Source: Dioscorea cayenensis subsp. rotundata (Eukaryota > Streptophyta > Magnoliopsida > Dioscoreales > Dioscoreaceae). From it: a DNA stretch of 64,000 nucleotides. The notes below the pieces were generated by a model. It saw nothing but the letters and a program-made list of their open reading frames with translations, had not been told where the DNA came from and ran no database searches. Positions 12,390 through 54,525 of this stretch are shown piece after piece (the first letter of the stretch is position 1; the number at the start of each line of letters is the position of its first letter). The position numbers and the translations under genes are program-made. Where the stretch lies: contig NC_052488.1 of the NCBI RefSeq assembly GCF_009730915.1, positions 24,155,868 through 24,219,867 of the forward strand. Direction: 5' to 3'.

Positions 12390-13640
12390 GGATGCATGCG
12401 GAGTAGGGTCGATTAATGGCTCGGGAGCGCGGGAGGAGCAGGATCCACGGAGCGGAGGTATCGCCGTTGACTTCGCCCGAGCGAGCGAGCTGCGGTTGAC
12501 GCGGTGACCGAGGGGTGAACTTAGAATCACGCGAGTTTAAAACAAAAGGCAGCGTTCCGTCGAAGCGGCCGTCGAAAGGAGTGAGGCGTTTGATAGCGGA
12601 GAAGCGAAGGAGTAGGGTGTCGCGATTTGGTTGGCCGACTGCTTGGGAGTGTCGGCGGCGGCCGGCCCGGTGGGCCAAAGGGTTGATCGACGGTCGAGGA
12701 GAAGAGAGGGGAATGGGAGGAGGGTGGATCTCTTCCTGGTCGCAGCCCGTGCCCGATAGCCTCGTAGAGATGGAGGTTTGAGGAGATAAAGTTCCACTAC
12801 GGATGTCACGGGTGGCGAGCGACTAGCGTGAGCGAAGCTGAGTGTCGCTCGAAACGCGTGATCGAGTAGATAGAGCGGCGGCTCAGTCGGAGAGATGGCG
12901 TAATGCGGATGAGCTGACCGAAGCTTAAAGCAATTGGGCCTCGTGGTTGACGAGGAGGATGAGCAAAACATTGCTCAATTTCGGCGGCTTGAGAGATGCA
13001 ATCGAGGAAGAGAGGTGTTCGATGGAAAATAACCAATAAAGATGCCGTCTTGATGCACGGAGTGGAATCAGTTAGCAAAAATGCTTGCATGATGTCCGAT
13101 TTTGTGTCTCGGCGATACTATGAAAAGGCGATGTTCTGCTCTGGGAAAAGTCGAGATAGACATCCTCGCAGCAAAATAAAGAGAACCTCTGAAAGTTTTG
13201 GAAGGCAAAGGTGGGAGCGGAGAGAGGGTAGTGTGGCTGGGCGTTGAAGTAGGAGGGAGAGGGAAGAATGGGCTGAGGGTGGGAGGTGAAGGTAAGAGTT
13301 GGGGTGGTGGTGGAGGTGTCGGTCGATTCGGGAGATGCCCGACCATAAGATCAACCATGATGGATTATCGAGGCGCCAAAGACTTGGACCATGTCGAGCA
13401 TCACGAATGTTCTTGTATTGTCTTTATGAAAGCGGCGTCGAGGCGAGAGAGAGAAGGTCGTCGTGTCAGTGTTTGGGGCATTTGTGAAGCGGTCGGTCGC
13501 CCATGCGTGCTTGTGGTGGTCACGCCGTGTCGATCGAGGGTCAATGAAAGCACCAATGTAAGCGCTTCTGCGGGAGATGAGGGAGGAAGAGTTGATCACT
13601 GGATTGAGAAGGAGATAAAGCGATAGGAAGAGAGAAGGAA
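12390..13640 (-). pseudogene. Ty3/gypsy gag fragment, heavily frameshifted
   Basis: This is a paralogue of the gag at 41996-43333 in the same orientation and with the same neighbours. It shares 'ggagtagggtcgattaatgg' and the pyrimidine-rich leader (13620-13680, seen as GGAAGA repeats on the plus strand). Recognisable pieces include EPLIDPTPHAS, LYLLKPPSL and FDRPPPP-like proline segments. It is more broken than its paralogue, and many differences are CAG/CTG read as CG strings. The family packages retrotransposon RNA into virus-like particles. This copy has no open frame of that length. Confidence 0.65.
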
Positions 13641-13990
13641 GGAAGAAGAGAGAAGAAGAAGAAAGAAGAGAGAAGTAAGAGACAGTGATGGATAGAAGTG
13701 GAGATAATATTTCTCTATCAAACTACTTTCATTACTGCTTGCACATATATCGATTTCTTTTACAATAATGCTCACGCATTCCCATGTGAGAACACTATTC
13801 TCACTGAGTTACTGAAATGACGTTCCTCCCCATGCGACTACGACAATAACTAGCAGAGCATCCAGCGTCTACATTATAAAAGTCTTTATATTTTTGCGAA
13901 ATTTAACACACCCGATTGGGTCTTGATGCTCTCCTATCTTTGGCGGTCCCCACCATCCACCTGAGTTAGCCATTAACTCCTTATCGCCCG
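13641..13990 (-). mobile_element. Probable 5' LTR/leader of the gypsy gag element (copy A)
   Basis: It matches 43334-43574 nearly base for base apart from indels, and ends where homology to the lectin 3' flank (28141 onward) begins. It therefore belongs to the insertion and not to the lectin block. I could not define TG..CA ends or a primer-binding site with confidence. Confidence 0.4.
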
Positions 13991-15051
13991 AGAATCTAGT
14001 GTTTAACTCCCGGGATTAAACTCCGGTCGATCCCGGGTTGAAATTTTTGACATTTGAGTAGTTGAGTTTGAGAAAGAGTCCAAGGTCCATTTGATACGCA
14101 CGATTTTAAGGGACATGACAAGACAACTTCTATTGTTATGTGTTTGATTTACAAAACTATGGCTAGAAATCTGTACACTACACTGATCGTACATCACAAC
14201 TTTTTAATTTTTGTACTACCAAAATCACGCAGTGCATTTGGAACGATAACTATTCAAAATGGTGTCCCTATTTAAAATTAAAAATTTATACTATTCATTA
14301 CAAAAAGTTATAACATGATTTATTTATTTATTCATCTATTTAAAAAATTTATATATATATATATATATATTTATTTATTTATTTATTTATTTATCTATCA
14401 ATTTATTTGTTTTTAGGATTAAGATATTAATAAAAGTTTGTTTGTTTTGAATTAAATATTTTTAAAATTATATTGATTTTTTAATTTGTTGTTATATTGT
14501 TAGATATCTTAAAATTTGATAAGATTTTTATAAAATATTATTGTATATTTTTTATTATAAAACAAGTATAGAATAGTATATTATTGTAATTTATTATTTT
14601 GGGTTCCGTACTTATCTAAAGTAAACATTAATCAACACAAAAATTTTTATACTGTTCAATAAAAATCAAATATAAAAGCAAGAAAAATAGTTATATTATA
14701 CTCTAACTACTTGTATCGTATGTGTTTTTCCTTAACTCACAAATCAAACGGGACGAGAGTCGGGTGAGGTGCATTTCAATGAATTCATTCACCGTGGAGT
14801 GTCACCATCCAAGTCGAGATCTTCTAAAAACTCCACATACATATATATATATATATATATGATATATATATATAATATGTATTTTTAAAACCTGTTTATG
14901 CGCTCAAGTTGAACAGTAAAAGCAAACTTAAAATTACGAGAAGTTAACTTTATTACTCACTGGCCAAATTAGAAGGCTTCCACATGCATCAGATCACAAC
15001 TCACAACAAAGCCATGGCGGGAGGAGGGAGGCTAGCTAGCTAGCTCAGTAG
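13991..15051. repeat. Lectin 3'-flank block, copy A
   Basis: A paralogue of 28141-29326 and 43575-44634. It is AT-rich and holds (AT)n runs at 14351-14369 and 14832-14861 and TTTA repeats. It shares with the 43.6-kb copy, but not the 28.1-kb copy, the string 'aagggacatgacaagacaac', so it derives from a unit-2-like ancestor. Confidence 0.75.
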
Positions 15052-15624
15052 CTACTTATCGTGACCATCTCAATCCGCACGATCGATCACTAGGTTTGCC
15101 AACGCCCGAGACGGACGACGGACTGCATTTCTGGCCCATAGATGCCGAGATCCGCATTAGACCGCAGATAAGAACGAACTCCGACACTCACGGTTGCAGG
15201 CCACTCGTTGGTCCGAGTATATCACCACCCCAATACTTCACTCTAAACTCACCGTCTTGCTTCGAGTGTGTAAAGCAGTCACTATGCAAAATGTTGTCGG
15301 TTATACCCAGATGCCATTTTGTGACTGCGTCACTGGTGAGCACCAGTTGCGAAGCGGCTGCAGATGTGAACTGTCGCCACCATTCATCGATGGTGGTGCG
15401 ATGGGAGCTATATCACGGAGTATTGCACTCGATCGGTGACCTTAGCCTAATGACTAAGCCCTGCTCCGTGGTCTCGAGTGTCTGCTGCCGCAAAGAGTTG
15501 GTTGTCCAAATCTTTGGGGACGTAGTATGCGCGAAGGGTACCATCGTCATCGGGAGGATGAGGGCATAGGTCCCATACTTTCGGGACTCTGCATGGGCTC
15601 TGTTCGTATGTCTCTAACTGTCTC
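15052..15624 (-). pseudogene. Two-domain GNA-type lectin pseudogene (psi3), C-terminal part
   Basis: The minus strand aligns with L2 from its stop codon back to about the middle of domain 1 (QYGTYALVLRYDGT region). It keeps tracts such as LEANGEFRVK-like and YGP coding, but is broken by many small indels and interrupted at 15625 by an LTR. Upstream coding sequence, signal peptide and promoter are absent. Many differences from L2 lie at CAG or CTG positions (for example 'gatcagcac' in L2 against 'gatcgatcac' here), so part of the damage may be base-calling error. The LTR still makes it a pseudogene. No protein is expected. Confidence 0.85.
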
Positions 15625-17233
15625 TGTGAGCCCCACCCCTTAAATTAGATCCTGGCGTCAATGCAAAACTTTTTCAATCGAGCCATTGATTTATAAGATT
15701 TTAAAAACCCTTGTTCTTATCCCTTGCGGTTACCAAATATCACGACTTTAACTATATCTCCACCACCCATGATCTTCTATTGTCGTAGGGAAACCCCTAG
15801 CCCTCATTTCGTTTCCTTATGGTGGTGCAGCCGGCAAAAGACTAGTGGATCTTCTTTTGAGAGTTTGTTTGCTTCTTTCTGCAAGGTAGGATCCTAGAGC
15901 TTTAGTGCATAATATATATTAATGATTATTAATGCCGGTTGGCTCTAGATTTCTTTCTTTCTTAAACCCTAAAATTTGTTCTTATTTGTGATTCACCTTT
16001 AATCCTTGAGATTTAGCCCTCTGAGTTTCTAGGGTTTTGTTCCAATTTGTAGTTTCAAAGAGTTTTGTTTCTCTTTTGATGTACGCACTCTAAGCATATT
16101 CCTCTAGGATCTTTGACCGTGATGCTTTAGTGGATTTAATCACGTCTCAAGGATGAGATTTTTGCATGATATATTTGATGTAATGTGAAGTATAGTTGAT
16201 TGAGGTATAGCCTTTTTAGTATAATTGTCTCGAATGATATTTCTGTGCAGAACTTGAAGAATCATAGGCCAATTTTGATGATCGAGAGATTGAATTAGAT
16301 GAGGTGAAAAAAATAAGAAAGTCAGTCATTTGTGAGTTGTCTAATTGTTAGTAAAATTTCATTACCTGGAGTCATGGGTTGAGAGATATGCATATTTTTT
16401 AAAAGTATATGTCTCGAATTATAAGTTCGTAAATAGTTAGAGATTCAATCGAATGTTATAAATCGAGTAGTACTCTAAATTATGTGAATTTCGGATATGT
16501 TATAGTGTTACTATTATTCCTAGAATTTTGAAATTTGTGATTTGTAAAAAGTGTGAGTGAAGTTATGAGGGTTTTAGTACTCATCGATCATATTGGAATT
16601 ATTGATATGGCTTTTTAGAGTGGTAATTGCTATTGCACCTCACAATAATCAATATTTGGGAGTGTAGAATAATACTTTGAACTTTTTGCATTTTGTACCC
16701 TTCTAAAAATCTTTTTATTTAATATTATTGTTTGTTAGCCTTCGATTTGTTATTTTGAAAGTCTAATAGGATCTCTTCTCAAATATAGGAAATGCCAAAG
16801 CGTGTAAGGCTTTGAGAGTATGACGATAATCGTGTAAGTATCCCACATATAAATCTTATTATATGTATATACTTGAAAAATTCAAGTTTTATGAACTTTT
16901 GGAATTTTTAAAGAAAAATTACCGATTATTTTTGAAATATATATTTTGAGTTATTTATTTATTATTATTTTTGGAATTACTTTAAATTATTTGAAATTTT
17001 GAGTTAATGATATTTTATTTTGGATTACACATTATCGGAAATGTTTAAATATTTATTTTAATTCGGATTATTTTATTTGTAAAAATTTAAATAGTTTATC
17101 TAAATATGTATTATTCCAATTATGAATTTCAGATATATTTTTAGTTAATTTTATGATTAATTATTATTAATCTTTGTAAGTTATCATTCATGTTTGAATT
17201 CAAGTAACTGGTTTATTTTGCTATGATAAAATG
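15625..17233. mobile_element. Truncated gypsy-type LTR inserted in lectin psi3
   Basis: Begins TGTGAGCCCCACCCC and aligns with the first about 1610 bases of the solo LTR at 51796-54213, diverging after 'gctatgataaaatggg'. It sits at the same position of the lectin as that solo LTR. Both lectin copies read GTct before the insertion where L2 reads GTac, so a single ancestral insertion was duplicated. The right part is missing and the sequence joins an unrelated gypsy gag. Confidence 0.75.
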
Positions 17234-17289
17234 GGGGCGCTGGCAAAGCCAATGGTGTTTGTTTTCGAAAAGCCCACGAAATACTCGGG

Positions 17290-18110
17290 ATCAGTAGGGT
17301 AGATTTAGATCTCCATCGGCCTCTCAACAAAAACCATACTTATCTTCAAACAATTTGGCTAGAGTAACTGCCTTTGTAATTGAATCAGGTTGCCAAGGAA
17401 TAACTTCCCATTGTAATTCCTTTTTCAACCCACTAATAAAGCACTCCAATAATGCCTCATTGGATAATCCTTCTACTCTGTTAGCCAAGCTTGTGAATGT
17501 GTGATAATAGTCAGTTACTATATTCTCTTGCAACAATTTGAATAATGCATGTAGATTCAATTGCTTTTGCCAAAGCATACCAAGTAGAAACAGCTCCTGA
17601 TTTTTGCAACATTTGAAACCATGGAACTACAGGGACCATCAAAGTGTATGGTGCCACTTTCAATCTATAAGCATATGAAATATCATAATAGTCAAAAATT
17701 GCTCTGCACACGAAATATCCATCGAAGAGCATTGCTACCATCAAACCGAGACAAGTCCATTTCAGCTGATCTCCGGTGAGAATTTGCTTTGTGATTTCAC
17801 CTCAATCATGGACCCGTAATGATCTCATGATTATAATGCATATGCGAAGAAGAGCCCACAAACCGATGTGATTGTAAAGATTCCATACACTTAGCAATGA
17901 GGCGAGAGATTGCTCGATCATAGACATACGTTCATCCTTGGCCCTATCCTTTTCCTCTTTCTCGATCTAGAACAGATCATGATGCTTTCCAATTTAGCGA
18001 CTAAATCTTTGAGACTAGTATGTTCGATCCATGCTTAGAGTTCAAGAACGAAAAAGCAACAAAATGTAATGATCCTTAAACCAATGAAATCTAGTTCCAA
18101 ATTCAACACT
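17290..18110 (-). pseudogene. Ty3/gypsy gag fragment (second family)
   Basis: The minus strand reads, with frame changes, KDERMSMIEQSLASLL, then FDGYFVCRAIFDYYDISYAY, RLKVAPYTL, VPWFQMLQKSGAVSTWYALAKAIES, and in a clean 84-codon frame (17324-17578) LANRVEGLSNEALLECFISGLKKELQWEVIPWQP. This is the retrotransposon gag core with the usual W-F/YF-R-L arrangement and the ISGLK..L segment. There is no zinc knuckle, protease or polymerase. It abuts a truncated LTR of a different family, so the junction is nested or rearranged. Confidence 0.75.
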
Positions 18111-18113
18111 CCA

Positions 18114-18780
18114 AGTAAATTCAAGAAATTCGCAGAGAATTAAGCTCTAAATCAGAGCTTTATCACTAGAGTTTTTCTCTATATTACTCGGAAATTCATA
18201 GATCCTAATCTTTGAAATACATTCAAGCAATTCAGTAGATTATGCTCAGATCTAGGGTTTTCACAGATCAACAAACAACAAATAGGCTGATTACGGGTTC
18301 TACGAAATTCATTCATCAACAACTCTAAAAAGCATGAACAATCAACACGATGAGGAAAACAAACCCAGCGAGAGAACCTCCGCCGAATTCCTCTCCGATC
18401 GTCTCCGAGAAAGGCCTTCACTCTTCTTCTCCGATACCCTCCCTCTCCTTTTCCGCCTCCTTTTATCCCCAAAAGTAATCCAGGAAGCAGTATTTGCTCT
18501 CCTCCGCCTTCGCTTTCCCATCCCATACCCTAGCACCGCTGAATTGCTTTCTTGTATTTTATTACGGCCGTCCCACGTGGCCACTAACTTCCCTAGCTGT
18601 CATTGGCGATGCATACTTTAATGACGATTCTCGCTTGAGTGCTTCACCCAACGACCTCTTCCTCATTCGATCACCAATCCTTTTCACAACCTTTCTTTTT
18701 GACCGCCACCTGTAAATTGACTGCCATGTGGCTTTCTTCTAATGATCTGGCTTTGAACCTGTAAGGCAACATGACACTCT
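18114..18780 (-). mobile_element. Possible 5' LTR/leader of the second gypsy element
   Basis: This lies directly upstream of the gag on the minus strand. Read on that strand it holds a TATA-like GGGATAAAAGG followed by a CT/GA-rich leader, and a possible start near TGTCATGTTGCC (about 18774). A weak GCTCT..A string near 18147 may be the primer-binding site. The open frames here on both strands are probably incidental. The LTR identity is not proven because no partner LTR is present. Confidence 0.35.
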
Positions 18781-19761: not shown

Positions 19762-19768
<7 letters not shown>

Positions 19769-20221: not shown

Positions 20222-22530
20222 ATGAGGCATTGGAAGTTGCTGCTCGGAAAGCATTTATAGTGGTAATTTGAAAATTGATGAGATCTCGCCTTTTATTCGT
20301 TAATAATTCTTATCCGACTGTTTTTAAATTTTGTTTTTTGCTCTTTATATTGTTCTTTCTTGGTGAATTCTAATAAATTGCTGTTTAATTTTAAACTTTG
20401 TTTTGTCAGCTTTGGAATTATGTGTGAAATGTTTCATCTACTCACCCACTTACTTTTTGAAACATTCTCCTGATTAAATATGCCCCTTCTATCCTGAGAA
20501 TATGCTGCTGCTACTACTTCATCGGCTATTTTATTCCGTTTAAAGTTTATGTTGGCTTTTTCCCATAGCATTCCTTCTTATTAATGTATGCTATATCCTG
20601 ACTGTTATGCCATCCTCTGCAGCAAGACAAGGAGAGATATGACCAGCAGTTACATGATATGGCAGCGATGGTCGAAAGACTTGAAAACAGTCGACAAAAA
20701 TTACTAATGGAGGTAAGCTATCCTTCATCAATGTGTTGCAAAATAGAAAAGAGGTGACTGGACTACTCAGGTTCATAAATGGCAGATTGACTCACAATCA
20801 TCAGAGATAGAAAGGCTCTTTGAAGAGAATTCCAATATGGCAACTTCATATCAGGATGCCATGTCTGCTGCCATGCAATGGGAAAAATCAGGGTACACTA
20901 CTTGGCATGCTGGCATAGCTTGATTTTGCAGTAATTACTTTTGGTTTGGGATCATTTTCGATATCTTGTTGACCGTTTCATTTCCTTTTTGTTGTTATCT
21001 GGTTTATGTACTTTATGCCATATCAAAGCTTATGCTATGGTATCACAGCCTTGCTCACTTGGTAAACGTAGTTAATTATACTTATCATTAGGTAGTTTGC
21101 AAATAGTGCCTTTGGTAGTTCTCACCGTGACGATTGTGCCTTAGACAATAGTCATAGAAGCATGCATCATTCTTTTGTTTTTGTAATGTGTTTGAGGTTG
21201 ATATATGTGCAAAAGTATTATTTACCCCTTTTTATGTTGTCTTCTGGACATTTATGGATACTGTGTTTTTAAAACAAAATTTATTTATTTGGTCCACTTA
21301 TATGAATCTATAATCACATAATGTAATTACTTGCTGCCATGGCTCACTTTATGATCTTAATTTTCATTCAGTTAGCATAACTTAGGGTGGGTTGTCCATG
21401 AAAATAATTTTCTGCCACTACTTTGTGATGAAGGACCTTGAAACTTCACCTTACCTTCTGGCCCCATGCTTGCTTGGAGAAGGCCTCAGTTTATTTGGTT
21501 CTAAGAATTAATGCCATTCAATTTGGTGCTATGGTTTAGAATGGAATAATGTTGGCTAGATGGGAGGTATTCATCAACACTTGGATGTTTTTAATATTGA
21601 AATTGACAGGTGAAAGATTGCCTGAAGCAGAATGAAGAGCTTCGCCACCTTCTTGATAAAATGAGATCAGAGCAAGTTAACCCATTGCAATCAAGTGATG
21701 GAAATATCCCTTCATATCCTGATACTGAGAAAATTGTTGGGAACATGTCCACCTCTCCTGCATCTGCAGTTGAATATCAGTTACTCAAGGTCAGTTTTTA
21801 GAGCTGAAGCTTGAAAGTTTATTCTAATTGTTCTCAACGTAACGTATTGCTGGTTTAATTTATATGAATTTTCAGCACTCTGTTTTCTTCTCCTGCATTA
21901 AATTATATTTTTATTTGCTCCCAACTTTCCTGTTATTTGATCGGTAGTGTATGTAGAAATGTTGTGCGGATGTCATATGTTCATGGCCGTATATGCGGAC
22001 TTGAGTGATCTCTGACCCACCTAATATTAATGTGTATGCCAATAAAAACAACTACATATATGTTGAAGTGGAATGGTATTGTGTGGCCAATCTATAGTTC
22101 TGCTAAAAGGTCTCAAAGAAAACTTTGGCATGATATTTCTGAGCTATTTGGAGGGAAAGTTTGGTGTTTGGTACTATTTGAAGCTTAGTTGTGCATGGAA
22201 TCCAACATTTATCTGATCATATGCTTGTATATTATCTGGTGATCATTTGTAGGGCCAGCTTGCTAAAGAACAGAGTAGGGCGGAAACACTGTCAGCGGAG
22301 GTTATGAAACTTACAGCCGAACTCAGACGTTCAGTGCAATCTTATAACAACCGTGCGAGACTGTAATGCTTTTTTTATCATCCTCTGAACCTGTCGTCTG
22401 ATTGTTAGTAAAGGTTGTGTCATGGGTGACTAAAACCATGTCTTCCTCGTGCAGGTATAGACCAGTTTTTCCGAAATATAGAGAACGAGCTTATGAAAAT
22501 GAAGCAAGAAAGTTTTGTCTCCATTCAGCT
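20222..22530 (+). pseudogene. Partial coiled-coil protein gene, six exons recognisable, frameshifted
   Basis: Probable exons with GT-AG borders: 20222-20262, 20623-20712, 20786-20892, 21610-21789, 22253-22362 and 22455-22530. Together they read DEALEVAARKAFIV, then [78 protein letters not shown], and finally LYRPVF then, in a shifted frame, RNIENELMKMKQESFV. Heptad-like spacing of L, A and E suggests a long coiled coil. It resembles uncharacterised USO1-like plant proteins, but I do not name it. Two breaks sit at homopolymers: an extra A before 20890 and an extra base near 22470. No start exon, stop or poly(A) region was found. It is either a gene fragment or a gene damaged by sequencing error, and its 5' side lies next to the hAT-like element. 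Confidence 0.6.
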
Positions 22531-23051
22531 GTAAGTTTCCTATGATTCCATTCAATCTTCATCCTGTGTTTCTACTACGGGATCAGATCAATGACAGTTT
22601 ATATTAAGCATGCTCAAGAATTTTTTCCAATTATGAATATGTATTACTATGTTACTGTGGTGCTTGTGAACAGTGTTCCCGAAGCAGCATTTATTTCTCT
22701 TTAATTTTTCAAACCACAGTTCATTATGCATTACCTGGACAAAAAAATTAGGGAATGGACGCTTGTCAAATAATGTAAATTGTCAAGAAATGCTTGTTTT
22801 TGAGAGAATTTATTTTGTTGTAAATTTTAGTGTTATGAAGTCATATAAAAAAAACAACCCTGAATTATACGAGTTGTGGGCAAATACATCTTGTTTATTT
22901 CTTGCAGTTTATACTTTAAAAAAGACGGTTGACGCCATCCATGCACATATATGGTAGTAAAATAATCTAACACTCTTAACATCCTTATTTTCTTTAAAGA
23001 AATTGGTAGCCATGACATACAGAGGTTGTTGGACACATTAAAAGCCCATAG
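22531..23051. other. Intergenic DNA between coiled-coil gene and lectin L1
   Basis: About 520 bases. The two genes converge here. A 94-codon plus-strand frame (22673-22957) has no family resemblance. The region must hold the L1 3' UTR (minus strand), but I see no clear poly(A) signal. Confidence 0.5.
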
Positions 23052-23882
23052 TTAGTCGGCAGAGACCGTGTCAATCTTGCCGGAAACAGCACCGGAGATG
23101 ACATTAGACCAGATTACAGGGCCATAGACAGTGAGCATGGCGTTGGTTTGCAGCACGAGAACAAACTCCGAATACGTGGGTGAAGCCACTCTGTTAGTCC
23201 AGAGAACATCACCACCCCAATGCTTCACTCTCAACTCACCATTAGCTTCCAAGTTAACGTAACAGTCATGCATGGTTCGGTCAGTGACACCAGTCTGCCA
23301 TTTTGTGGCTCCGTCGCCGTTGAGCACCAGGTTGCAGTCGTCCAGCAGTGTGAGTTCATTGTTCCCATTAACGATCGTGGTTCCGATGGGTGCTACATCA
23401 CCGGAGTAGAGCACTGACTCAGTGGTCTTCGTCCAAGTCCAACCAACAATCCCTGCTGTTAGTTGTGCCGAAGAGGACCCAGCACTCCAAAGCTGGGGAC
23501 CATATATACGAAGGGTGCCGTCATAGCGGAGGACGAGGGCATAGTACCCAACTTGGGACATAATGCCGCTGCTCCAGAGTGGGTAGCGAAAACGTGGGTG
23601 CCAAACGGCGAGTTTGCCGTTCAGGTCCAGAGTGACGTAGCACTCAGCTGAATAGCCCCCTGTCATGGTTTCCCACACTCTTGTGCTGCCATTTTTCAGG
23701 ACGAGGTTGCAATCAGATTGCAGGGTCAGGGAGTATTCCATGTACGTCAGGTTTTGGCCCCCCGCTGTCAGGACGTCGCCTCCGATCATGAAGTTGGAAC
23801 CTAAACCAGAGCAGATGAGGAAGGCGAGCTGAATGCTAAAGAGAAGCAGAAGGGTTTGGAGGACCTGCTGGATTATTGCCAT
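23052..23882 (-). CDS. Secreted two-domain GNA-type (bulb-type) lectin L1
   Basis: 276 codons, uninterrupted, no intron. Residues 1-28 form a signal peptide (hydrophobic LLLLFSIQLAFLIC, cleavage probably before LGSNF), so the protein enters the secretory pathway. Domain 1 spans about 29-135 and domain 2 about 155-262. Each has the beta-prism II pattern DCNLVL, an LxxNGxL strand and a YGPxxW end. Cysteines 58/81 and 183/207 fit the family's disulfides. The canonical sugar site QxDxNxVxY appears as QSDCNLVLK (55-63) and LDDCNLVLN (180-188), so the tyrosine is lost in both and Q in the second. The other four potential sites are more degenerate. Known relatives bind mannose and act as storage or anti-insect proteins. 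Here binding may be weakened or changed. The start aligns with Met9 of L2. Its promoter region alone is duplicated at 38405-40400. Confidence 0.93.
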   Translation of the reverse strand: MAIIQQVLQTLLLLFSIQLAFLICSGLGSNFMIGGDVLTAGGQNLTYMEYSLTLQSDCNLVLKNGSTRVWETMTGGYSAECYVTLDLNGKLAVWHPRFRYPLWSSGIMSQVGYYALVLRYDGTLRIYGPQLWSAGSSSAQLTAGIVGWTWTKTTESVLYSGDVAPIGTTIVNGNNELTLLDDCNLVLNGDGATKWQTGVTDRTMHDCYVNLEANGELRVKHWGGDVLWTNRVASPTYSEFVLVLQTNAMLTVYGPVIWSNVISGAVSGKIDTVSAD

Positions 23883-26607: not shown

Positions 26608-26613
26608 AGCATT

Positions 26614-27300: not shown

Positions 27301-27314
27301 AGCTGCACTTATGG

Positions 27315-27417: not shown

Positions 27418-27437
27418 GAATGTAAGCCTTCATGCAA

Positions 27438-38403: not shown

Positions 38404-38404
38404 G

Positions 38405-43574: not shown

Positions 43575-44634
43575 CACAGAATCTAGTGTAACTGCCGGAT
43601 TGAACTCCGATCGATCCCGATTGAAATTTTGACATTTGAGTAGTTGAGTTTGAGAAAGAGTCCAAGGGTCTGTGTGATACGCATGATTTTAAGGGACATG
43701 ACAAGACAACTTCTATTGTTATGTGTTTGATTTACAAATATGGCCGAAGTACAGCACAAACTACCCAATCGGTACATCACAACTTTTTAATTTTTTGTAC
43801 TACCAAAATCACGATACGAAAAATTCGGGCAGGACAACTAATGATAAAATTGTCCCTATTTAAAATTAAAATTTATACCATTCATTACAAAAGTTATAAC
43901 ATGATTTATTTATTTTATTTTATTTATTTATTCATCTATTTAAAAATTTATATATATATATATATTTATTTATTTATTTATCTATCAATTTATTTGTTTT
44001 TTAGGATTAAGATATTAATAAAAGTTTGTTTGTTTTGAATTAAATATTTTTAAAATTATATTGATTTTTTAATTTGTTGTTATATTGTTAGATATCGTAA
44101 AATTTGATAAGATTTTTATAAAATATTATTGTATATTTTTTTATTATAAAACAAGTATAGAATAGTAAAAAAATATTATTGTAATTTATTATTTTGGGTT
44201 TCGTACTTATCTAAAGTAAACATTAATCAACACAAAAAATTTTATACTGTTCAACAAAAATCAAATATAAAACAGTAAAAATAGTTATATTATACTCTAA
44301 CTACTTGTCTTTGTATGTGTTTTTCCTTAACAAATCAAGCGGACTGAGAGAGTCGGTGAGGTGCATTTCCGAGTGAATTCATTCAGCGTGGAGTGGCACC
44401 ATCCAAGTCGACATCTTCTAAAAACTACACATACATATATATATATATATATATAATATGTATTTTTAAAACCTGTTTATGTGCTCAAGTTGAACAGTAA
44501 AAGCAAACTTAAAATTACGAGAAGTTAACTTTATTACTCATGGCCAAATTAGAAGACTGTTTCACACGTGCATAAGATCACAACTCACAACAAAGCCATG
44601 GCAGCGGGAGGGAGGCTAGCTAGCTAGCTAGTAG
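43575..44634. repeat. Lectin 3'-flank block, copy C
   Basis: Aligns with 28141-29326 (without the 142-bp insertion) and 13991-15051. AT and TTTA simple repeats. No gene visible. Confidence 0.75.
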
Positions 44635-45004
44635 CTACTTATCGGTGACCATCCCAATCCCATGATCGGTGCTAGGTTTGCGATGCCGGATCGCGAGAGC
44701 CCGAACGGATTTCGAGGCCCATAGATGCTTTGAGATCCGCATTAGACACGCATGATAAGAACAAACTCCGCATGCGGTTTGCGGCCGCTCCGTTGGTCGG
44801 AGTATATCACCACCCCTGATGCTTCACTCTAAACTCACCGTTTGTTTCGAGGTTAGCGAAAGCGATCATGCAAAATGTTGTCGGTGCTCGCGATGCGCCA
44901 TTATGTGACTCACAGTCATTTGGTGAGCACCGGAGTTGCGATCGTCTTTGCGGTGTGAGCCTGTCGCCACCATTCACGATGGTGGTGCTCGATGGGGAGC
45001 TATA
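44635..45004 (-). pseudogene. Lectin pseudogene psi4, C-terminal piece
   Basis: Matches L2 from its stop codon to about the middle of domain 2 (IGTTIVNGG region). It has many small indels, mostly at L2's CAG/CTG positions, which here read CGG, CG or CGAG. It ends at the 5-bp CTATA duplication of the 6.6-kb LTR element. The other pieces are 51581-51795 and 54214-54525. Confidence 0.85.
45000..45004. repeat. Left target-site duplication (CTATA) of the 6.6-kb LTR element
   Basis: CTATA here and at 51581-51585. Paralogues psi3 and L2 have a single CTATATCAC or CTACATCAC at this place. Confidence 0.9.
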
Positions 45005-48000
45005 TGTAATACCACGAACCTTTGGATAATTCTTTGGAAAAAAATATTTAGGGTATTACTACGGTTGCGATAAGATTTTTTTCTACAGAGTAATCTTGTT
45101 GAGAAAGCCCAAGTGGAAAGAATAAGGACCTAAAGTGTAAAAACTTTTTTAAAAAGATTTTTGGGTTAAAGAATAAATGAAAAGGGTGGACATGAAATGT
45201 TTATGGAAACCGAGGGGACTGAAAGGTAAGATGGAAGGGATCTTTTTAAAAAAATGTTGTGTTATAACCTGGGGACCGTTGGGTAATTTGAAAGGACCTT
45301 TTTGAGAATACTATTTCATAATTCAGGGGATCATTGGTGAGTTTTTCAGGGACTGTTTTTGTAAGAAAAATATATTTGGAGGGATTGAAAGTGAATTTCG
45401 GCTGAAAAATGTAATTTAGAGGGAAAAAAATCTAGGGTTTGAGAAATTGTTCATCTTCTTCTCCATCTTTTGTGCTACTGATAGCTCGAGAAGAAAAAAA
45501 TAAAATAAAAAAAATGAAGAAATGAGGAGAAAAAAATGGGAGATTTGAGGTGGGGGATGGGAGATCGCTGAGGAGGAGCTCACGGAGGGATAGTTTTAGT
45601 TGGTAAGAGCTTTTCTTGGTGTATTTTTTTGATGAATGAGTGTATGTATGCATGTATATATGTGTATTTGATGGATTTGATGAAGATAATGATGGATTTG
45701 AGTAGGAAAAAAACATGTTTAATGGTTATAGATGATTGTTGCTTCGATTTGTGTTGAAAAAAATCGTTGTATTTGTGATGAATCTAAAAGCTTGAATGAA
45801 GGATGAGATTTTTCGGTTTCTTATGTGCAATTCTTGTAGCACGAGATTAGGGTTTGGTTTGATTAATTAAGTTGATGATGATGATGATTAAGGTGTTAAT
45901 GATGATGGTTAGATTGGAATTGGTTGAGTTAGCCAAGTTGATTTGGTTGGATCAAACCAAGTTATAATTGATTTGGTTGAGTTGAATTGAATTGAATTGA
46001 TTGAGTTGAGTTTGATTTGGTTTAACCAAGTTCATTTAATTGAATTGGAATTGGGTTTGGATGAGAATTGAATTGGTTGGGTTTGATTGAATTGATCCGA
46101 GTCGGGGGTTTGATTAAATCAAGTTGAGTGTGGTTGGACTTGAATGGTTTGGTTGAATTAAATTAGTTGAAGTTGATTTGGGTTTTGGTTTTGGATGTTG
46201 GGCTAAGGGTTTTGGGCGAACCAAGTTGGTTCAACGAAATTTGTATAAAAATTGAGTTGGTTCAAGGCTGGTTGGTTTAATTAAACCTGGTTCAGATGAA
46301 ATTGAGTTTGGTTCGAGTGAATTTGAGCTTGGTTCGGTGGAATTGAGGATGGTTCGGGGTTGGTCAGGAATGAGTACAGTCCAAATTGAATTGGCTTAAT
46401 TGTAATTGGAGACGATTTGGTTATCTGAGTCGAGGGTTTGAGCAGATTGGAGTGAGTGGGCGATAGATAGATCTATTATTGTTCTTGTATTTTTCTTTTT
46501 GTTTAAATATGTTATTTATTTTTATTATTATTACTATTAGGTGTTGTTCGGGTCTTGGGAGGGAGTTCAGGGTCTGTGAGGAACCGAGGACAGGAGTGAG
46601 TTAGTAGTGGCTATTATTTTTAAATAATTGATTAATTATTATTATTTTGAAATAATTGTTTAATGAGCTAGTATTTTGGAAATAAATGTTTAAGTATTTC
46701 ATTTTTATCATGTTTAATTACGTATAAAGGTCGAAAATATACTTATATTTATTTTTCCTACGATGTGCTCGTGATAATAGTATTGATACGTCGAGTTTTT
46801 GTATAATTATACGTGTTGTGAATAGTGAAAATACATGTATATGTGATTTAATTATTCAATTCTTGTATTTATTTTTTTGATGGGTATATATGCTTTGATT
46901 TGGAGTGATTTGCGAAACCATGTGAGCATATTAAAGATGTTTTTATCGGCGTTGTTAGTAGAATTGGTTTTCGTTCTCGGTATAGGAATGGTATAGATGA
47001 ATCACGGGCTTTCTTGGCGTTATGCGTTGTTATACTTTTGGCGTTGACTTTTGTGGAAAATAATGGTTATTTCCAGTGATGTGAATACTTGTCACGGAAA
47101 AGGATCACGTGTTATGATTTATCTGAGATGGTATTATTCTGTATTTACTTGATGGTTTTGATGGTGACGGGCTGAGGCCCGACTACTGCGATAGTGGGTC
47201 CCCACGGGCCGACCTTTAGAGGTGGCGTGGTGGACTGGGTGTTGATTACTACGAGGGGCGGTTCGGTGGGAGTGTAGAGCCACGTTGGATATTCAGTCGG
47301 AGTGGCAGGGGTCGTCGGGCCGGTGAGCCAGATGGGTCAGCCGATGGGGCGTGAGTTCCTTGGCGACTCTGAACCTAAGCCCGTGCCCGGCGAGGGGTTT
47401 AGAGAGTTTTTCTAGAACCATGTTATCTTTGGGTGAGTGTTGGGTATTGCTTTATTTTTGAATTTGAGATTTATGTTATATTTTTTTGAATTGTGATGAG
47501 ACCGGACTCTCCACAAAATTTGTGTTTTCAGGAAAATCAAATTGATGTTGATTTATGTTGAATTTAAGTTTCAAGAGTTCTTTAAAGATTGTATTTTTGC
47601 TAGAATTACGGTATTTTTTGGAAAAGTTGGAAAAAAATTATTTGAGAAGTTGGTATTTATATACTTTATATATCTTGTATTTAAATATTTGAAATTATTA
47701 AGCCACTCTGAAGCCATTGAATGTCTTTGTAGGCTGCGAGGGAGCGGGGACCCTAGATTGCTGATCGAGTATAGAGCTAGTCGGGGGTTGAGTCCATAGC
47801 TGGGATGGGTCCCCCACTTTTCTTTATTTCTTGTCGTTGGTGTTGTGATCTTGTAAGCGGTTGTACCCATAAATTTGAGTTATTGTATTCATAATATTTA
47901 TGTATTTGAGACACTGTAGTTGGTGTAAAGTTGTAAAAATGTGATTTTGTAAGTTTGATTTGATTTTTTTGAGAGCGTCGGGTTTCGGTTAAAAGGGATT

Positions 48001-48053
48001 TTTTTAAGCGATGGGTGCTACGTTCTACCTCGAGTGGAAGGGGTGGGTGTGAC
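45005..48053. mobile_element. 5' LTR (about 3.05 kb) of a non-autonomous gypsy-type retrotransposon
   Basis: Begins TGTAATACCACGAACC and ends GGGTGGGTGTGAC, where the partner ends GTGACA. It aligns over its full length with 48552-51580. Long 'ttgaattgg..gttga' low-complexity tracts lie at 45880-46440. Short open frames inside (for example at the equivalent of 49074) are not protein-like. Differences between the two LTRs concentrate at CNG sites in the CG-rich part (47160-47400 against 50690-50950). Confidence 0.9.
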
Positions 48054-48551: not shown

Positions 48552-51500
48552 TGTAATACCCACGAACCTTTGGATAATTCTTGGAAAAAAATATTTAGGG
48601 TATTACTACGATTTGCGATAAGATTTTTCTACTGAGTAAAGTCTTGTTGAGAAACACAGTGGAAAAGAATAAGGACCTAAGTGTAAAACTTTTTTAAAAG
48701 ATTTTTTGGGTTAAAGAATAAATGAAAAGGGTGGACATGAAATGTTTATGGAAACCGAGGGAGCTGAAAGGTAAGATGGAAGGGATCTTTTTAAAAAAAT
48801 GTTGTGTTATAACCTGGGGACCGTTGGGTAATTTGAAAGGACCTTTTTGAGAATACTATTTCATAATTCAGGGATCATTGGTGAGTTTTTTCAGGGACTG
48901 TTTTGTAAGAAAATATATTTGGAGGGATTGAAAGTGAATTTCAGCTGAAAATGTAATTTAGAGGAAAAAAATCTAGGGTTTGAGAAATTGTTCATCTTCT
49001 TCTCCATCTTTTGTACTCTGATAGCGAGAAGAAAAAAATAAAAATAAAAAAATGAAGAAATGAGGAGAAAAAAATGGGAGATTTGAGGTGGGGGATGGGA
49101 GATCGTGGGAGGAGGCTCATGGGAGGGATGGTTTTAGTTGGTAAGAGCTTTTCTTGGTGTATTTTTTTGATGAATGAGTGTATGTATGCATGTATATATG
49201 TGTATTTGATGGATTTGATGAAGATAATGATGGATTTGAGTAGGAAAAAAACATGTTTAATGGTTATAGATGATTGTTGCTTGATTTGTGTTGAAAAAAA
49301 TCATTGTATTTGTGATGAATCTAGCTTGAATGAAGGATGAGATTTTTCGGTTTCTTGTATGCGATTCTTTGTAGCAGAGATTAGGGGTTTAGTTTGATTA
49401 ATTAAGTTGATGATGATGATGATTAAAGGTGTTAATGATGATGGTTAGATTGGAATTGGTTGAGTTAGCCAAGTTGATTTGGTTGGATCAAACCAAGTTA
49501 TAATTGATTTGGTTGAGTTGAATTGAATTGAATTGATTGAGTTGAGTTTGATTTGGTTTAACCAAGTTCGTTTAATTGAATTGGAATTGGGTTTGGATGA
49601 GAATTGAATTGGTTGGGTTTGATTGAATTGATCTGGTCAGGGTTTGATTAAATCAAGTTGAGTGTGGTTGGACTTGAATGGTTTGGTTGAATTAAATTAG
49701 TTGAAGTTGATTTGGGTTTGGTTTTGGATGTTGGGCTAAGGGTTTTGGGCCGAACCAGAGTTGGTTTAACGAATTTGTATAAGATTGAGTTGGTTGAGGC
49801 TGGTTGGTTTAATTAAAGCACTGGTTCGGTGAAATTGAGTTTGGTTCGGTGAATTTGAGCTTGGTTCGGTGGAATTGAGGATGGTTCGGGGTTGGTCAGG
49901 AATGAGTGCAGTCAAATTGAATTGGGCTTAATTGTAATTGGAGACCAATTTGGTTATCTGGTCGGGGTTTGAGCAGATTGGAGTGAGTGGGTCGATAGAT
50001 AGTCTATTATTGTTCTTGTATTTTTCTTTTTTTGTTTAAATATGTTATTTATTTTTTATTATTATTCTATTAGGTGTTGTTCGGTCTTGGGAGGGAGTTC
50101 AGGGTCTAGCGAGGAACCCAAGGACACGGGTGAGTTGGTAGTGGCTATTATTTTAAATAATTGATTAATTATTATTATTTTTGAAATAATTGTTTAATGG
50201 CTAGATATTTTTGGAAATAAATGTTTAAGTATTTCATTTTATCATGTTTAATTGCAGTATAAAGGTGAAATATACTTATATTTATTTTTCCTACGATGTG
50301 CCGTGATAGCAGTATTGATACATCGAGTTTTGTATAATTATACGTGTTGTGAATAGTGAAAATACATGTATATGTGATTTAATTATTCAATTCTTGTATT
50401 TATTTTTTTGATGGGTATATATGCTTTGATTTGGAGTGATTTGCGAAACCATGTGAGCATATTAAAGATGTTTTTATCGGCGTTGTTAGTAGAATTGGTT
50501 TTCATTCACGGTATAGGGAATGGTATCAGTGGATCTGAGGCTTTCTTGGCGTTATCGTTGTTATACTTTTGGCGTTGACTTTTGTGGAAAATAATGGTTA
50601 TTTCAGTGATGTGAATACTTGTCACGGAAAAGGATCTCGTGTTATGATTTACTCTGAGATGGTATTATTCTTTGTATTTACTTGATGGTTTTGATGGTGA
50701 CGGGCTGAAGGCCCGACTCTGCGATGAGTGGGTCCCCGAGGCTGACCTTTTAGAGGTGGCGTGGTGGACACAGGGTGTTGATTACTCACGAGGGCCGGTT
50801 CGGTGGGAGTGTAGAGCCACGGCTGGATATTCATCGAGTGGCCAGGGGTCGCGGCCAGGGTGAGCCAGATGGGTCGGCGATGGGGCGTGAGTTCCTTGGC
50901 GGCTCTGAACCTAAGCCCGCTGACCCCGGCGAGGGTTTTAGAGAGTTTTTCTGAACCATGTTATCTTTGGGTGAGTGTTGGGTATTGCTTTATTTTTGAA
51001 TTTGAGATTTATGTTATATTTTTTTGAATTGTGATGAGACCAGACTCTCACAAAATTTGTGTTTTCTGAGAAAATCAAATTGATGTTGATTTATGTTGAA
51101 TTTAAGTTTCAAGAGTTCTTTAAAGATTGTATTTTGCTAGAATTACGGTATTTTTGGAAAAAGTTGGAAAAAAATTATTTGAGAAGTTGGTATTTATATA
51201 CTTTATATATCTTGTATTTAAATATTTGAAATTATTAAGCCACTCTGAACCATTGAGATGTCTTTGTAGTTTGCGGGAGGCGAGGGACCCTAGATTGCTG
51301 ATCGAGTATAGAGCTAGTCAGGGTTGAGTCCATGACTGCAGTGGGTCCCCCCCTTTTCTTTATTTCTTGTCATTGGTGTTGTGATCTTGTAGCGGTTGTA
51401 CCCGCAAATTTGAGTTATTGTATTCATAATATTTATGTATTTGAACCTGTAGTTGGTGTAAAGTTGTAAAATGTGATTTGTAAGTTTGATTTGATTTTTG

Positions 51501-51580
51501 AGAGGCGTCAGTTTCCAGTTAAAAGGGATTTTTAACTGATGGGTGCCACATTTACCTCGGTGGAAGGGGTGGGTGTGACA
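48552..51580. mobile_element. 3' LTR (3029 bp) of the same element
   Basis: Begins TGTAATACCCACGAACC, ends GGGTGGGTGTGACA, and is followed by the CTATA duplication at 51581-51585. With the 5' LTR it makes a 6576-bp element inserted in lectin psi4. Confidence 0.92.
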
Positions 51581-51795
51581 CTATATCACCGGAGTATTGC
51601 ACTGAATCGATGACCTTAGCCCAATTGACTAAAGCTGTTAGGGTGGTCTTTGAGTGGGTCATCTTTGTTGAAGAGTTGGTACATCAAATCTTGGGGGACG
51701 TATATCTCGAAGGGTACCATCGTCTTGGGAGGGACGAGGCGTGGGTCCCATCTTGGGACTACTGTCTGGGTAGTTCAGGATGTCGTGGCTGTCTT
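51581..51795 (-). pseudogene. Lectin pseudogene psi4, middle piece
   Basis: Continues L2 homology from the TSPVLYSGDV/APIG region back to the ALVLRYDGT and NSRTES region of domain 1, with many indels. It lies between the 6.6-kb element and the solo LTR. Confidence 0.8.
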
Positions 51796-54213
51796 TGTGA
51801 GGCCCCGTCCCTTAAATTAGATCCTGGCAGTCGATGCAGAACTTTTTCAATCGAGGCCGTTTGATTTATAAGATTTTTAAAACCCTTGTTCTTATCCTTG
51901 CGGTTACCAAATATCACGACTTAACTATATCTCCACCACCCATGATCTTCTATTGTCGTGAGGCAAAAAACCCCTAGCCCTCATTTCCGTTTCCTTCAGT
52001 GGTGGTCTTGGCAGCGAGGACTAGTGGATCTTCTTTTTGAGGTTTGTTACGCTTCTTTCAAGGTAGGATCCTAGAGCTTTGTGCATAATATATATTAATG
52101 ATTATTAATGCTGGGTTGGCTCTAGATTTCTTTCTTTCTTAAACCCTAAAAATTTGTTCTTATTTGTGATTCAGCCTTTAATCCTTAGATTTAGCCCTTG
52201 AGTTTCTAGGGTTTGTTCCCGATTTGTAGTTTGGAAGAGTTTTTGTTTCTCTTTTTGATGTATGCACCTAAGCATATTCTTAGGATCTTTTGACCGTGAT
52301 GCTTTTATGGATTTAATCACGTCTCGAGGATGAGATTTTTGCATGATATATTTGATGTAATGTGAAGTATAGTTGATTGAGGTATAGCCTTTTTAGTATA
52401 ATTGTCTCGGATGATATTTCTGTACAGAACTTGAAGAATCATGGCCAATTTTGATGATCATAGAGATTGAATTAGATGAGGTTAAAAATAAGAAAGTTGT
52501 TCATTTGTGAGTTGTCTAATTGTCACTAAAATTTCATTACTTTTGGAGTTGTAGGTTGAGAGATATGCATATTTTAAAAGTATATGTCTGAATTATAAGT
52601 TGCAGAAATAGTTAGAGATTCAATTGAATGTTATAAATTGAGTAGTACTCTAAATTATGTGAATTTCGGATATGTTATAGTGTTACTATTATTCCTAGAA
52701 TTTTGAAATTTGTGATTTGTAAAAGTGTGAGTGAAGTTATGAGGGTTTTAGTACTCATTGATCATATTGGAATTATTGATATGGCTTTTAGCTAGAGTGG
52801 GTAATTGCTATTGTACCCTCACAATAATCAATATTTGGGAGTGTAGAATAATACTTTGAACTTTTTGCATTTGTACCCTTCTAAAAATCTTTTTATTTAA
52901 TATTATTGTTTGTTAGCCTCGATTTGTTATTTGAAAGCTAATAGGATCTCTTCTCAAATATAGGAAATGCCAAAGGTGTAAGGTTTGAGAGTATTTTTTT
53001 GGCGATAATCAGGTAAGTATCCCACATATAAATCTTATTATATGTATATACTTGAAAATTCAAGTTTTATGAACTTTTGGAATTTTTAAAGAAAATTACT
53101 GATTATTTTGAAATATATATTTTGAATTATTTACTTATTATTATTTTTGGAATTACTTTAAATTATTTGAAATTTTTGAGTTAATGATATTTTATTTTTG
53201 GATTACAATTATCGGAAAGGTTTAAATATTTATTTTTAATTCGGATTATTTTTATTTGTAAAAAAATTTAAATAGTTTATCTAAATATGTATTATTCAAT
53301 TATGAATTTCGGATATGTTTTAGTTAATTTATGATTAATTATTATTAATAAGTTATACTATTCATGTTTGAATTCAAGTAGCGGTTTATTTTGCTATGAT
53401 AAAATGGGATCATAAGACTGCTAAAAATTTTTGTTTGGCATATTATTCAGTATTATGCTGTAATCGCAATTTTTGTTAGTTTATTGTTTTGTGAGCATGC
53501 GGTATTTTGACATAAAAACTAGTCCCCGATTAACTATGCTGATAACCACATGCGGTGGGGGTTAAACAACGACCCAGGTAGTCGACACGTATTTTTGATC
53601 TAGAAACTATAGTTTTCCCACCGCTTTGCCGTCGTTGAAGAATATCGGCCTTTGATAATTTTTGGCTCAGGGAGTCATAGGGGTAAAAAAATATGACTTT
53701 TTGTTAAATTTTTGTCTCGGGTCTTCGAGGGTAAACATATGAATTTTTGTAATTTTGTTTTAGCGATAGTTGTTTTGGGGGACCCTATATGCTCGGTTTT
53801 GACATCTTTGTTTACTTGAAATAATTCGGTTTCCGATTTTTCTCATTTAGATAAATTATGATTTTTGTGTAAATGATCCCAATATTTTTTTAGTGGTTGC
53901 TTCTCTGAGTTTGTCGAGCTCATAAATTTTGTTGATATCGGATCGGGAGTAGAGGGTCGGGTGGCGAGATAGCTTAGCAAGGATCGTTGGGCCATCGCCG
54001 TTTTATTTAGCTTGTAATAAGTCCCTTATTGTTGTGGGCCTAGGTTTTATTTGAATAAGTTTATATTGTTTTTGCAATCCACGATTTTTGATTTTTTTGT
54101 TACTGTTTTGAATCGAGTTTGAGGCCTTGTATGCTCTACTTGGTATCGGCCTTGTGAGGTGTCTGACGCGTTTGTCGGTGTCCGGGTCCATAAAAGTCGG
54201 GTTGGGCGTGACA
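51796..54213. mobile_element. Solo LTR of a gypsy-type retrotransposon (2418 bp)
   Basis: Starts TGTGAGGCCCCGTCCC and ends GGGTTGGGCGTGACA. It is flanked by GTCT(T) on the left and CGTCT (54214-54218) on the right, consistent with a 5-bp duplication, and lectin sequence resumes immediately. No internal region or second LTR is present, so unequal recombination probably removed them. The first 1.6 kb recurs at 15625-17233. Confidence 0.82.
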
Positions 54214-54525
54214 CGTCTCAGAGTGTAGAGGTAGAGTTTGCCATTCGGGAGAGGTGAGGTGGCACCCTCGCCCATAGCCACTAGTCGTGGTCTCCCAGAT
54301 TCATTTGTGCTCCCGTTTTTAAGGACAAGGTTGCGATCCGATTGCATAGTTAGGTTGTATTCCTTGTACGTCGGGGTTTTGGCCCTCTACAGCCAGTAGG
54401 CCGCGGTGATCATGAAGTTGGAAGCCAAACCCAGGAGGAGATAAGGACGCCGAGCTGAATGCTAAAGAGTCGAAGTGTTTGAAGGACCTTGGTATCGCCA
54501 TTGGAGTTGGAACTAGCTTCTTCAC
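54214..54525 (-). pseudogene. Lectin pseudogene psi4, N-terminal piece with signal peptide
   Basis: Matches L2 residues 1 to about 105: MKKLVPTPMAI, a frameshifted hydrophobic signal segment, QNP/LTYKEY-like and QSDxNLVLKNGST. Frameshifts occur within the signal peptide and after GST. Its core promoter is split by the hAT-type insertion at 54579. Confidence 0.85.

What the first reader, a model, noticed from the sequence alone, without database searches (positions are those of the whole stretch)
12390..54525. CAG/CTG sites are systematically garbled in transposons and lectin pseudogenes but not in the intact lectins: a possible methylation shadow in the assembly
At 29341-29420 intact L2 has six CAG/CTG by my count. 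The aligned stretch in psi3 (15062-15140) has two and in psi4 (44647-44730) none. Both read CG-type strings at the same positions ('gatcagcac' becomes 'gatcgatcac' in one and 'gatcggtgc' in the other). The same occurs between the two 3-kb LTRs ('ggtcagccg' against 'ggtcggcg') and in the copia RNase H, where expected CAG codons read CGAG. Natural decay of methyl-C gives TAG/TTG, not CG with added or lost bases. Plant transposons are CHG-methylated, and long-read basecallers are known to err at modified motifs. So the errors may mark methylated DNA, many 'frameshifts' may be false, and hypomethylated genes (L1, L2, L5, copia gag at 26614) stand out as clean.
Basis: partly seen in the sequence, partly recalled or inferred. 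Interest (0 to 1): 0.8.

Follow-up and report, generated by a model that had tools for sequence, protein, structure and literature searches.

The report
Methylation-linked sequencing errors in yam genome
Parts of this white Guinea yam reference sequence contain false letters, concentrated at CAG/CTG, sites that plants methylate, so some apparent gene breaks and mutations there are probably sequencing errors rather than evolution.

Summary
The window lies near the end of contig C18 (24,280,954 bases) of an assembly that the protein search ties to Dioscorea cayenensis subsp. rotundata. In 13 duplicated segment pairs, CAG/CTG becomes a CG-containing string other than the simple transition at 75 of 526 sites, against 46 of 3691 control sites (odds ratio 13; similar under four scorings). 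The sharpest pair is 0.4% substituted away from CG/CAG/CTG, yet loses 18 of 38 CAG/CTG, one by C-to-T decay. The assembly's 5S rRNA arrays show it too: the three CAG/CTG sites per unit are kept in 116 of 330 cells, CG dinucleotides in 629 of 660; 10 of 214 changes are C-to-T. This is sequencing error, not mutation, best explained as nanopore misreading of CHG-methylated DNA left uncorrected by polishing; platform and methylation are inferred. One L1 copy pair has 13 homopolymer indels yet keeps 79 of 79 CAG/CTG, so missing polish alone does not explain it. Garbling is patchy (12 of 32 further pairs show none), 'clean' does not prove 'unmethylated', and psi3/psi4 remain true pseudogenes because of insertions.

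The parts
29330..30169 (-). L2, intact GNA-type two-domain lectin gene (280 aa); clean reference copy for psi3 and psi4
   Evidence: ORF list; Pfam B_lectin PF01453 above cut-off; P0004 matches 100%
23052..23882 (-). L1, intact GNA-type lectin gene (276 aa); near-identical copies lie in L008 and L003
   Evidence: B_lectin, below curated cut-off; best PDB match 1dlp
60136..60939 (-). L5, intact GNA-type lectin gene
   Evidence: B_lectin above cut-off
14863..15591 (-). psi3 lectin pseudogene piece with garbled CAG/CTG (11 of 31 L2 sites read as CG strings)
44444..45005 (-). psi4 lectin pseudogene, piece before the LTR element; 14 of 23 L2 CAG/CTG read as CG strings
51581..51786 (-). psi4, middle piece after the LTR element
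54205..54578 (-). psi4, 5' piece after a second insert; 6 of 14 L2 CAG/CTG read as CG strings
45005..48053 (+). 5' LTR of the element inside psi4; the more garbled LTR (11 of 49 CAG/CTG of the 3' LTR read as CG strings here)
48552..51579 (+). 3' LTR of the same element (2 of 36 CAG/CTG of the 5' LTR read as CG strings here); CTATA on both sides of the element
26584..28266 (+). clean copy of a copia gag region (ORF 26614-27300); its near-identical copy L004:7366-9070 loses 18 of 38 CAG/CTG
   Evidence: (Retrotran_gag_2)
17232..18523 (+). segment with copy L009:8685-10000; 0.3% substitutions away from CG/CAG/CTG, CAG/CTG garbled in both directions
21741..23795 (+). L1 gene region with copy L008:3471-5534; 13 homopolymer indels away from CG/CAG/CTG but 79 of 79 CAG/CTG kept
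12399..14862 (+). garbled repeat block flanking psi3, paired with about 42054-44443
11049..12048 (.). 1000-N join; CpG observed/expected is 1.13-1.56 in the nine scored 1-kb bins from 3001 to 13000 around it

Best explanation
The CG-type strings at CAG/CTG sites are consensus basecalling errors, not DNA changes. In native nanopore reads of plant DNA, 5-methylcytosine in CHG context (mCAG/mCTG) is misread, often as a CG dinucleotide with a base changed, added or lost. Where short-read polishing did not reach (repeats, duplicated pseudogenes, rDNA arrays, stretches beside joins) the errors stayed in the assembly. Shown here: the motif specificity, the mismatch with natural decay, recurrence on another chromosome in rDNA, and independence from background homopolymer error at one locus. 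Inferred: that the platform was nanopore, that the sites are methylated, and that polishing failed there.
For: 75 of 526 CAG/CTG against 46 of 3691 control sites become CG strings other than the simple transition (70-75 under four scorings); ten pairs that hardly overlap give 22 of 185 against 11 of 1365 and, in the other direction, 15 of 181 against 8 of 1382. In 32 further pairs from fetched loci: 99 of 1731 against 61 of 7942, odds ratio 7.8. CAG to CGAG 9 of 250 against the same insertion in CAA 2 of 497, CAC 3 of 410, CAT 1 of 582. L004/window pair: 0.4% substitutions away from CG/CAG/CTG; 18 of 38 CAG/CTG lost (11 garbled, 5 transition, 1 decay) against 8 of 179 controls with 0 garbled. 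5S rRNA, 110 units: changed bases 239 of 990 in CAG/CTG against 252 of 9790 elsewhere; CG sites kept 629 of 660. L1 pair: 13 homopolymer indels but 79 of 79 CAG/CTG kept in both directions. Clean pair 27438-27956/41083-41593 shows ordinary CHG decay (4 of 9) with no gaps near these sites. GCAGC and GCTGG modification-mediated nanopore errors are documented in Listeria (PMC10687267, passages); plant methylation is named as a likely cause of basecaller inaccuracy (PMC9749173, passages).
Against: No raw reads, methylome or independent assembly was available. That this assembly used nanopore reads is recalled; the held text of PMC7749330 refers to its SI for the assembly. 1-kb composition shows no CpG versus CAG/CTG correlation. 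Ten 10-kb samples from other chromosomes look ordinary as a whole (CpG o/e 0.34-0.68, though single kilobases reach 1.8), one repeat pair there is not clearly enriched, and 12 of 32 further pairs have no such string at all, so CHG methylation alone is not sufficient. Homopolymer-rich copies are not all free of it: L008:221-3468 against the window has 39 homopolymer indels and 4 garbled of 77. CAG is garbled more often than CTG on the + strand (70 of 250 against 33 of 276), unexplained. 5S errors have two array-specific forms, which real array variants could mimic.
Confidence: 0.86

Rival explanations
1. Ordinary evolution: methylated CpG and CHG decay by C-to-T, with CGG decaying to CAG in one copy, plus alignment noise between old repeats.
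For: CA-to-CG type differences exist for all CAN (CAA to CGA 21 of 497, CAT to CGT 22 of 582, CAC to CGC 9 of 410), so part of the CAG/CGG differences can be real. TAG/CAA/TTG/CTA outcomes occur, 4 of 9 in the clean pair 41083-41593 against 27438-27956.
Against: CG strings other than the plain transition are strongly enriched at CAG/CTG (odds ratio 13). Copies only 0.3-0.4% diverged elsewhere lose 18 of 38 and 20 of 33 CAG/CTG. In 5S units CG sites are kept 629 of 660 while CAG/CTG are kept 116 of 330, the reverse of what methyl-C decay predicts.
Confidence: 0.04
2. Nanopore error intrinsic to the CAG/CTG sequence, independent of methylation and seen wherever polishing failed.
For: Garbling goes with unpolished features: homopolymer indels in the LTR pair (32 away from CG/CAG/CTG against 16 substitutions), a 1000-N join nearby, and tandem arrays.
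Against: The L1 pair has 13 homopolymer indels and loses 0 of 79 CAG/CTG in either direction; L003:1-1084 against L008 has 9 and loses 0 of 28 and 2 of 30. At the same background gap rate (0.012 per base) the L004 pair loses 18 of 38.
Confidence: 0.08
3. Real, homogenised sequence variants: 5S arrays and duplicated loci carry genuine variant families that happen to differ at CAG/CTG.
For: Two array-specific signatures in 5S and a skewed number of hit sites per unit (23, 10, 27, 50 units with 0, 1, 2, 3 sites hit).
Against: Outcomes at the CTG site differ between units that are otherwise alike; clean and garbled units are interspersed inside one array; the same motif is hit on C18 and C10 in unrelated sequences.
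Confidence: 0.02

Closest known systems
Modification-mediated systematic errors in Oxford Nanopore sequencing (Listeria, GCAGC and GCTGG motifs; PMC10687267, passages seen)
   Same: Errors recur at a short motif containing CAG or CTG that is a modification target; they survive read consensus; strains without the modification system were of high quality.
   Different: There bacterial modification systems and mostly mismatches; here plant CHG context, many insertions and deletions, CG-containing miscalls, in a finished eukaryotic reference. Short-read or amplification proof is missing here.
Accuracy loss of general basecallers on plant DNA, improved by species-specific models (PMC9749173, passages seen)
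   Same: Methylation differences between lineages proposed there as a likely cause of lower accuracy with a general model.
   Different: The passages seen give no motif or error spectrum, and CHG has 0 occurrences in the main text held.
Methylcytosine decay (CpG and CHG C-to-T) in plant repeats (recalled)
   Same: Also concentrated at CG and CHG of methylated repeats; its signature is seen in the clean pair here.
   Different: Gives TG/CA and TAG/CAA without indels and depletes CG; the garbled psi3 and psi4 stretches gain CG (8 and 8 against 1 in L2).

Membership tests
Modification-mediated nanopore basecalling error | errors concentrated at one modifiable motif across unrelated loci | tested here: met
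   CAG/CTG in the C18 lectin cluster and its transposons and in 5S arrays on C10 and C1989
Modification-mediated nanopore basecalling error | the known true sequence differs from the called sequence | tested here: met
   5S rRNA units against a unit found identical in 10 of 110 copies; that plant 5S is nearly invariant at these sites is recalled
Modification-mediated nanopore basecalling error | same motif read correctly in unmodified DNA of the same data set | tested here: inconclusive
   L1 region keeps 79 of 79 despite homopolymer indels, but its methylation state was not measured
Modification-mediated nanopore basecalling error | errors vanish after amplification or in short reads | not testable with these tools
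   no reads held
Modification-mediated nanopore basecalling error | assembly made from nanopore reads | not testable with these tools
   main text of PMC7749330 refers to its SI for the assembly (passages); nanopore is recalled
Natural methylcytosine decay | C-to-T (or G-to-A) at CG and CHG, CG the most mutable | tested here: not met
   5S: 10 of 214 CAG/CTG changes are decay; CG kept 629 of 660
GNA-type mannose-binding lectin (L1, L2, L5) | B_lectin Pfam domain PF01453 | tested here: met
   L2 and L5 above the curated cut-off, L1 slightly below (29.6 against 32.4 bits); best PDB sequence match of L1 is 1dlp

The most novel reading that the evidence does not exclude
Leftover basecalling errors in finished plant reference sequences form a readable map of CHG methylation, so that a coarse methylome of the sequenced plant can be recovered from the deposited letters alone, by scoring CAG/CTG against CG-string miscalls in near-identical copies. 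The same errors inflate pseudogene counts and transposon ages in such references.
Probability: 0.3. Interest if true: 0.6.

Novelty: new member of a known kind. Interest (0 to 1): 0.45.

Why it matters
This is a chromosome-scale white Guinea yam assembly; the RefSeq assembly of that species serves as a reference in comparative yam work (passages). If the strings are errors, some apparent gene breaks, LTR ages and 5S or repeat 'variants' in it are false. In the LTR pair, substitutions are 8.1% next to CG/CAG/CTG and 0.7% elsewhere. Other plant references built from native nanopore reads may carry the same errors (inference). The pattern gives a quick test that needs only the assembly: compare CAG/CTG in near-identical copies, or look at 5S rRNA units.

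Tried and rejected

The 'near/far from CG or CAG/CTG' divergence tables are partly circular, because garbling itself creates CG; I rely instead on counts conditioned on CAG/CTG in one copy. Both directions of each pair were counted in the 526-site table, and psi3, psi4 and L2 enter more than once; a subset of 10 of the 13 pairs that hardly overlap is given separately. The 32 further pairs also count both directions, share some segments and include pairs with the window.

The plus-strand-only 5S analysis (43 units) was superseded by 110 units on both strands. A context rule linking the base before CAG to one fixed miscall was looked for; the commonest outcome after T was CGG in the segment pairs but CG in the 5S units, so it does not carry over.

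A test of plastid DNA inserted in the nucleus against the plastid genome was planned as another known truth; the genome search for PF00223 did not complete. Literature: no held paper with all of nanopore, basecalling errors, plant, methylated, CHG; 2 papers with all of nanopore, plant, methylation, basecaller, CHG context, error, of which one (PMC10027222) was opened, and its shown passages describe basecaller versions and methylation calling only. Also seen as passages without bearing on the mechanism: PMC6242865, PMC12931034, PMC7140821, PMC9680860, PMC9994440. No claim that the effect is unpublished is made beyond those searches.

Rows dropped: 13 of the self-BLAST pairs listed were used (shorter, more diverged or overlapping ones left out); of 39 cross-locus pairs, 7 under 75% identity were left out, 32 analysed. 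The 5S search listed 47 matches and gave loci for 30; the 110 units come from those 30 loci.
Full report
Where this is. The window is G000:C18:24155868-24219867 of a 584,211,761-base assembly with 2249 contigs. The lectin search returned proteins named Dioscorea cayenensis subsp. rotundata from a contig of 24,280,954 bases, the length of C18. So this is white Guinea yam; an assembly of that species is named as GCF_009730915.1, TDr96_F1, in PMC13128126 (passages). The D. alata genome paper says the D. rotundata v2 assembly relied on linkage mapping to order scaffolds (PMC9010478, passages), which fits the 1000-N joins seen here. That it was built from nanopore reads is my recollection; the main text held refers to SI sections S1 and S2 for the new assembly (PMC7749330, passages).

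What the locus holds. It is a cluster of two-domain GNA-type lectins with many segmental duplications: the window duplicates itself in many places, and further copies lie in both flanks. L1, L2 and L5 are open. psi3 and psi4 share a repeat insert in the lectin frame (from 15592 and 51787 on; the match 15408-17235 to 51581-53408 runs through it), and psi4 also holds an LTR element, 45005-51579, with CTATA on both sides. So both are structurally broken whatever the letters say.

The observation. The quoted counts and strings are correct. In 13 duplicated pairs, CAG/CTG is lost in 51% of 526 cells against 27% of 608 for GAC/GTC; trinucleotides containing CG are lost at 37-60%. Of 142 lost CAG cells, 21 read CGG, 16 CG, 9 CGAG, against 5 TAG and 5 CAA. 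Because CGG can decay to CAG in nature, I set aside that transition and counted the other CG strings: 75 of 526 against 46 of 3691 for CAA/CAC/CAT/TTG/GTG/ATG, similar under four scorings. In 32 further pairs that involve fetched loci it is 99 of 1731 against 61 of 7942, with 12 of the 32 pairs showing none. CAG to CGG itself is only about twice as frequent (21 of 250) as CAA to CGA (21 of 497) or CAT to CGT (22 of 582). Direction: CAG/CTG in the L2 copy and its flanks reads as a CG string, transition included, in psi3 or psi4 at 38 of 84 sites; the reverse holds at 4 of 47 (sums). At sites shared by L1 and L2, psi3 keeps 2 of 10 and psi4 0 of 10.

Natural decay is excluded for the sharpest cases. 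L004:7366-9070 and window 26584-28266 differ by 0.4% away from CG/CAG/CTG; of 38 CAG/CTG in the window copy, 18 are lost: 11 as CG strings, 5 as the transition, 1 as C-to-T, 1 other; of 179 control sites 8 are lost, none as such a string; in the other direction 4 of 24 are lost, 1 as such a string. L009:8685-10000 against window 17232-18523 differs by 0.3% elsewhere and loses 20 of 33 CAG/CTG in one direction and 9 of 22 in the other. By contrast the clean pair 27438-27956/41083-41593 shows ordinary decay, 4 of 9, and no gap near these sites. The two patterns can be told apart in the same assembly.

A known truth. I took the assembly's 5S rRNA genes and extracted 110 distinct units from the 30 loci returned. 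Ten are identical to the unit used as reference; that plant 5S is nearly invariant at these sites is recalled. The three CAG/CTG sites per unit are kept in 116 of 330 cells; 128 read as CG strings, 10 as C-to-T decay, 76 otherwise. The six CG dinucleotides scored are kept in 629 of 660, with 9 decays. Changed bases are 239 of 990 in CAG/CTG, 66 of 1650 in CG/CCG/CGG, 252 of 9790 elsewhere. Units with 0, 1, 2, 3 sites hit number 23, 10, 27, 50, and clean and garbled units are interspersed within arrays. Methyl-C decay should hit CG first; it does not. Other weak spots in these units include an added A in AAA, a lost A in CGAAG and a lost C in CCGG. Against me: two array-specific error forms exist, so I cannot exclude that some units are real variants.

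Is it methylation or only missing polish? Garbled stretches also carry homopolymer indels: the LTR pair has 32 away from CG/CAG/CTG, against 16 substitutions. So polishing seems to be missing there. But L008:3471-5534 against window 21741-23795, the L1 gene region, has 13 homopolymer indels and keeps 79 of 79 CAG/CTG in both directions; L003:1-1084 against L008 has 9 and loses 0 of 28 and 2 of 30; L003:1-2577 against the window has 19 and loses 7 of 83 and 3 of 79 (1 garbled); L008:221-3468 against the window has 39 and loses 3 of 70 and 10 of 77 (4 garbled). At the same background gap rate as the L1 pair (0.012) the L004 pair loses 18 of 38. A property of the locus other than polish is needed, and CHG methylation, which has a large role in silencing transposons (PMC8514461, passages) and is low on most gene bodies (recalled), is the natural candidate. 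This step is inferred. The converse does not hold: a clean stretch may be methylated but polished. Ten 10-kb samples from other chromosomes have CpG observed/expected of 0.34-0.68 as a whole, with single kilobases up to 1.8, and ten flanking C18 samples 0.45-0.93, against 1.13-1.56 in nine scored kilobases around the join in this window; garbling is patchy.

How it most likely works. A basecaller that has learnt 5mC mainly in CG context meets mCAG or mCTG and emits CG with a base changed, too many or too few; reads of a strand err alike, so consensus keeps it; short reads repair it only where they map. The training-bias part is inference. [quoted passage not shown]

Consequences. In the LTR pair substitutions are 56 in 690 bases next to CG/CAG/CTG and 16 in 2286 elsewhere. 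The split is partly circular, since errors create CG, and real decay also falls there, so it bounds rather than measures the inflation of the element's age. Of gap events between L2 and the psi3/psi4 lectin pieces (mostly coding), 69 of 89 lie within two bases of CG/CAG/CTG, in 855 of 1709 columns, so frameshifts there should not be used as evidence of age. Annotated models P0002 and P0010 from the same chromosome equal the intact L1 relative P0001 apart from blocks that look like frame errors or skipped pieces and, in P0010, one substitution; whether these come from the same errors was not tested at DNA level.

Noticed in passing
45005-51579: LTR element with 3.05-kb LTRs but only about 498 bp between them, inserted in the psi4 lectin with CTATA on both sides; looks like a large non-autonomous or deleted derivative (a Ty3-type chromovirus end by recalled resemblance).
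   Followed up: partly
15592-17235 and 51787-53408: psi3 and psi4 share a second insert within the lectin frame, so the lectin was probably broken before the two copies separated; psi3 then joins a different segment at about 17232.
   Followed up: partly
whole window, + strand: CAG is replaced by CG strings more often than CTG (70 of 250 against 33 of 276), an asymmetry that neither double-stranded mutation nor symmetric CHG methylation predicts.
   Followed up: no
5S arrays, loci L022-L051: Two array-specific error signatures (CCGGCAC with ATCGAAC on C1989 and C10 near 13.57 Mb; CCAAAGAC on C10 near 12.5 and 12.9 Mb), perhaps consensus taken from opposite strands.
   Followed up: partly
L008:4795-5534 and L003:2182-2577: Further near-identical L1 lectin copies beside the window; the one in L008 ends close to a 1000-N join. 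The cluster is a recent segmental array near the end of C18.
   Followed up: partly
3001-13000: CpG observed/expected of 1.13-1.56 in the nine scored kilobases around the N join, far above the 0.34-0.68 of ten whole samples from other chromosomes; the part before 12399 was not analysed by pairs because no near copy was found.
   Followed up: no
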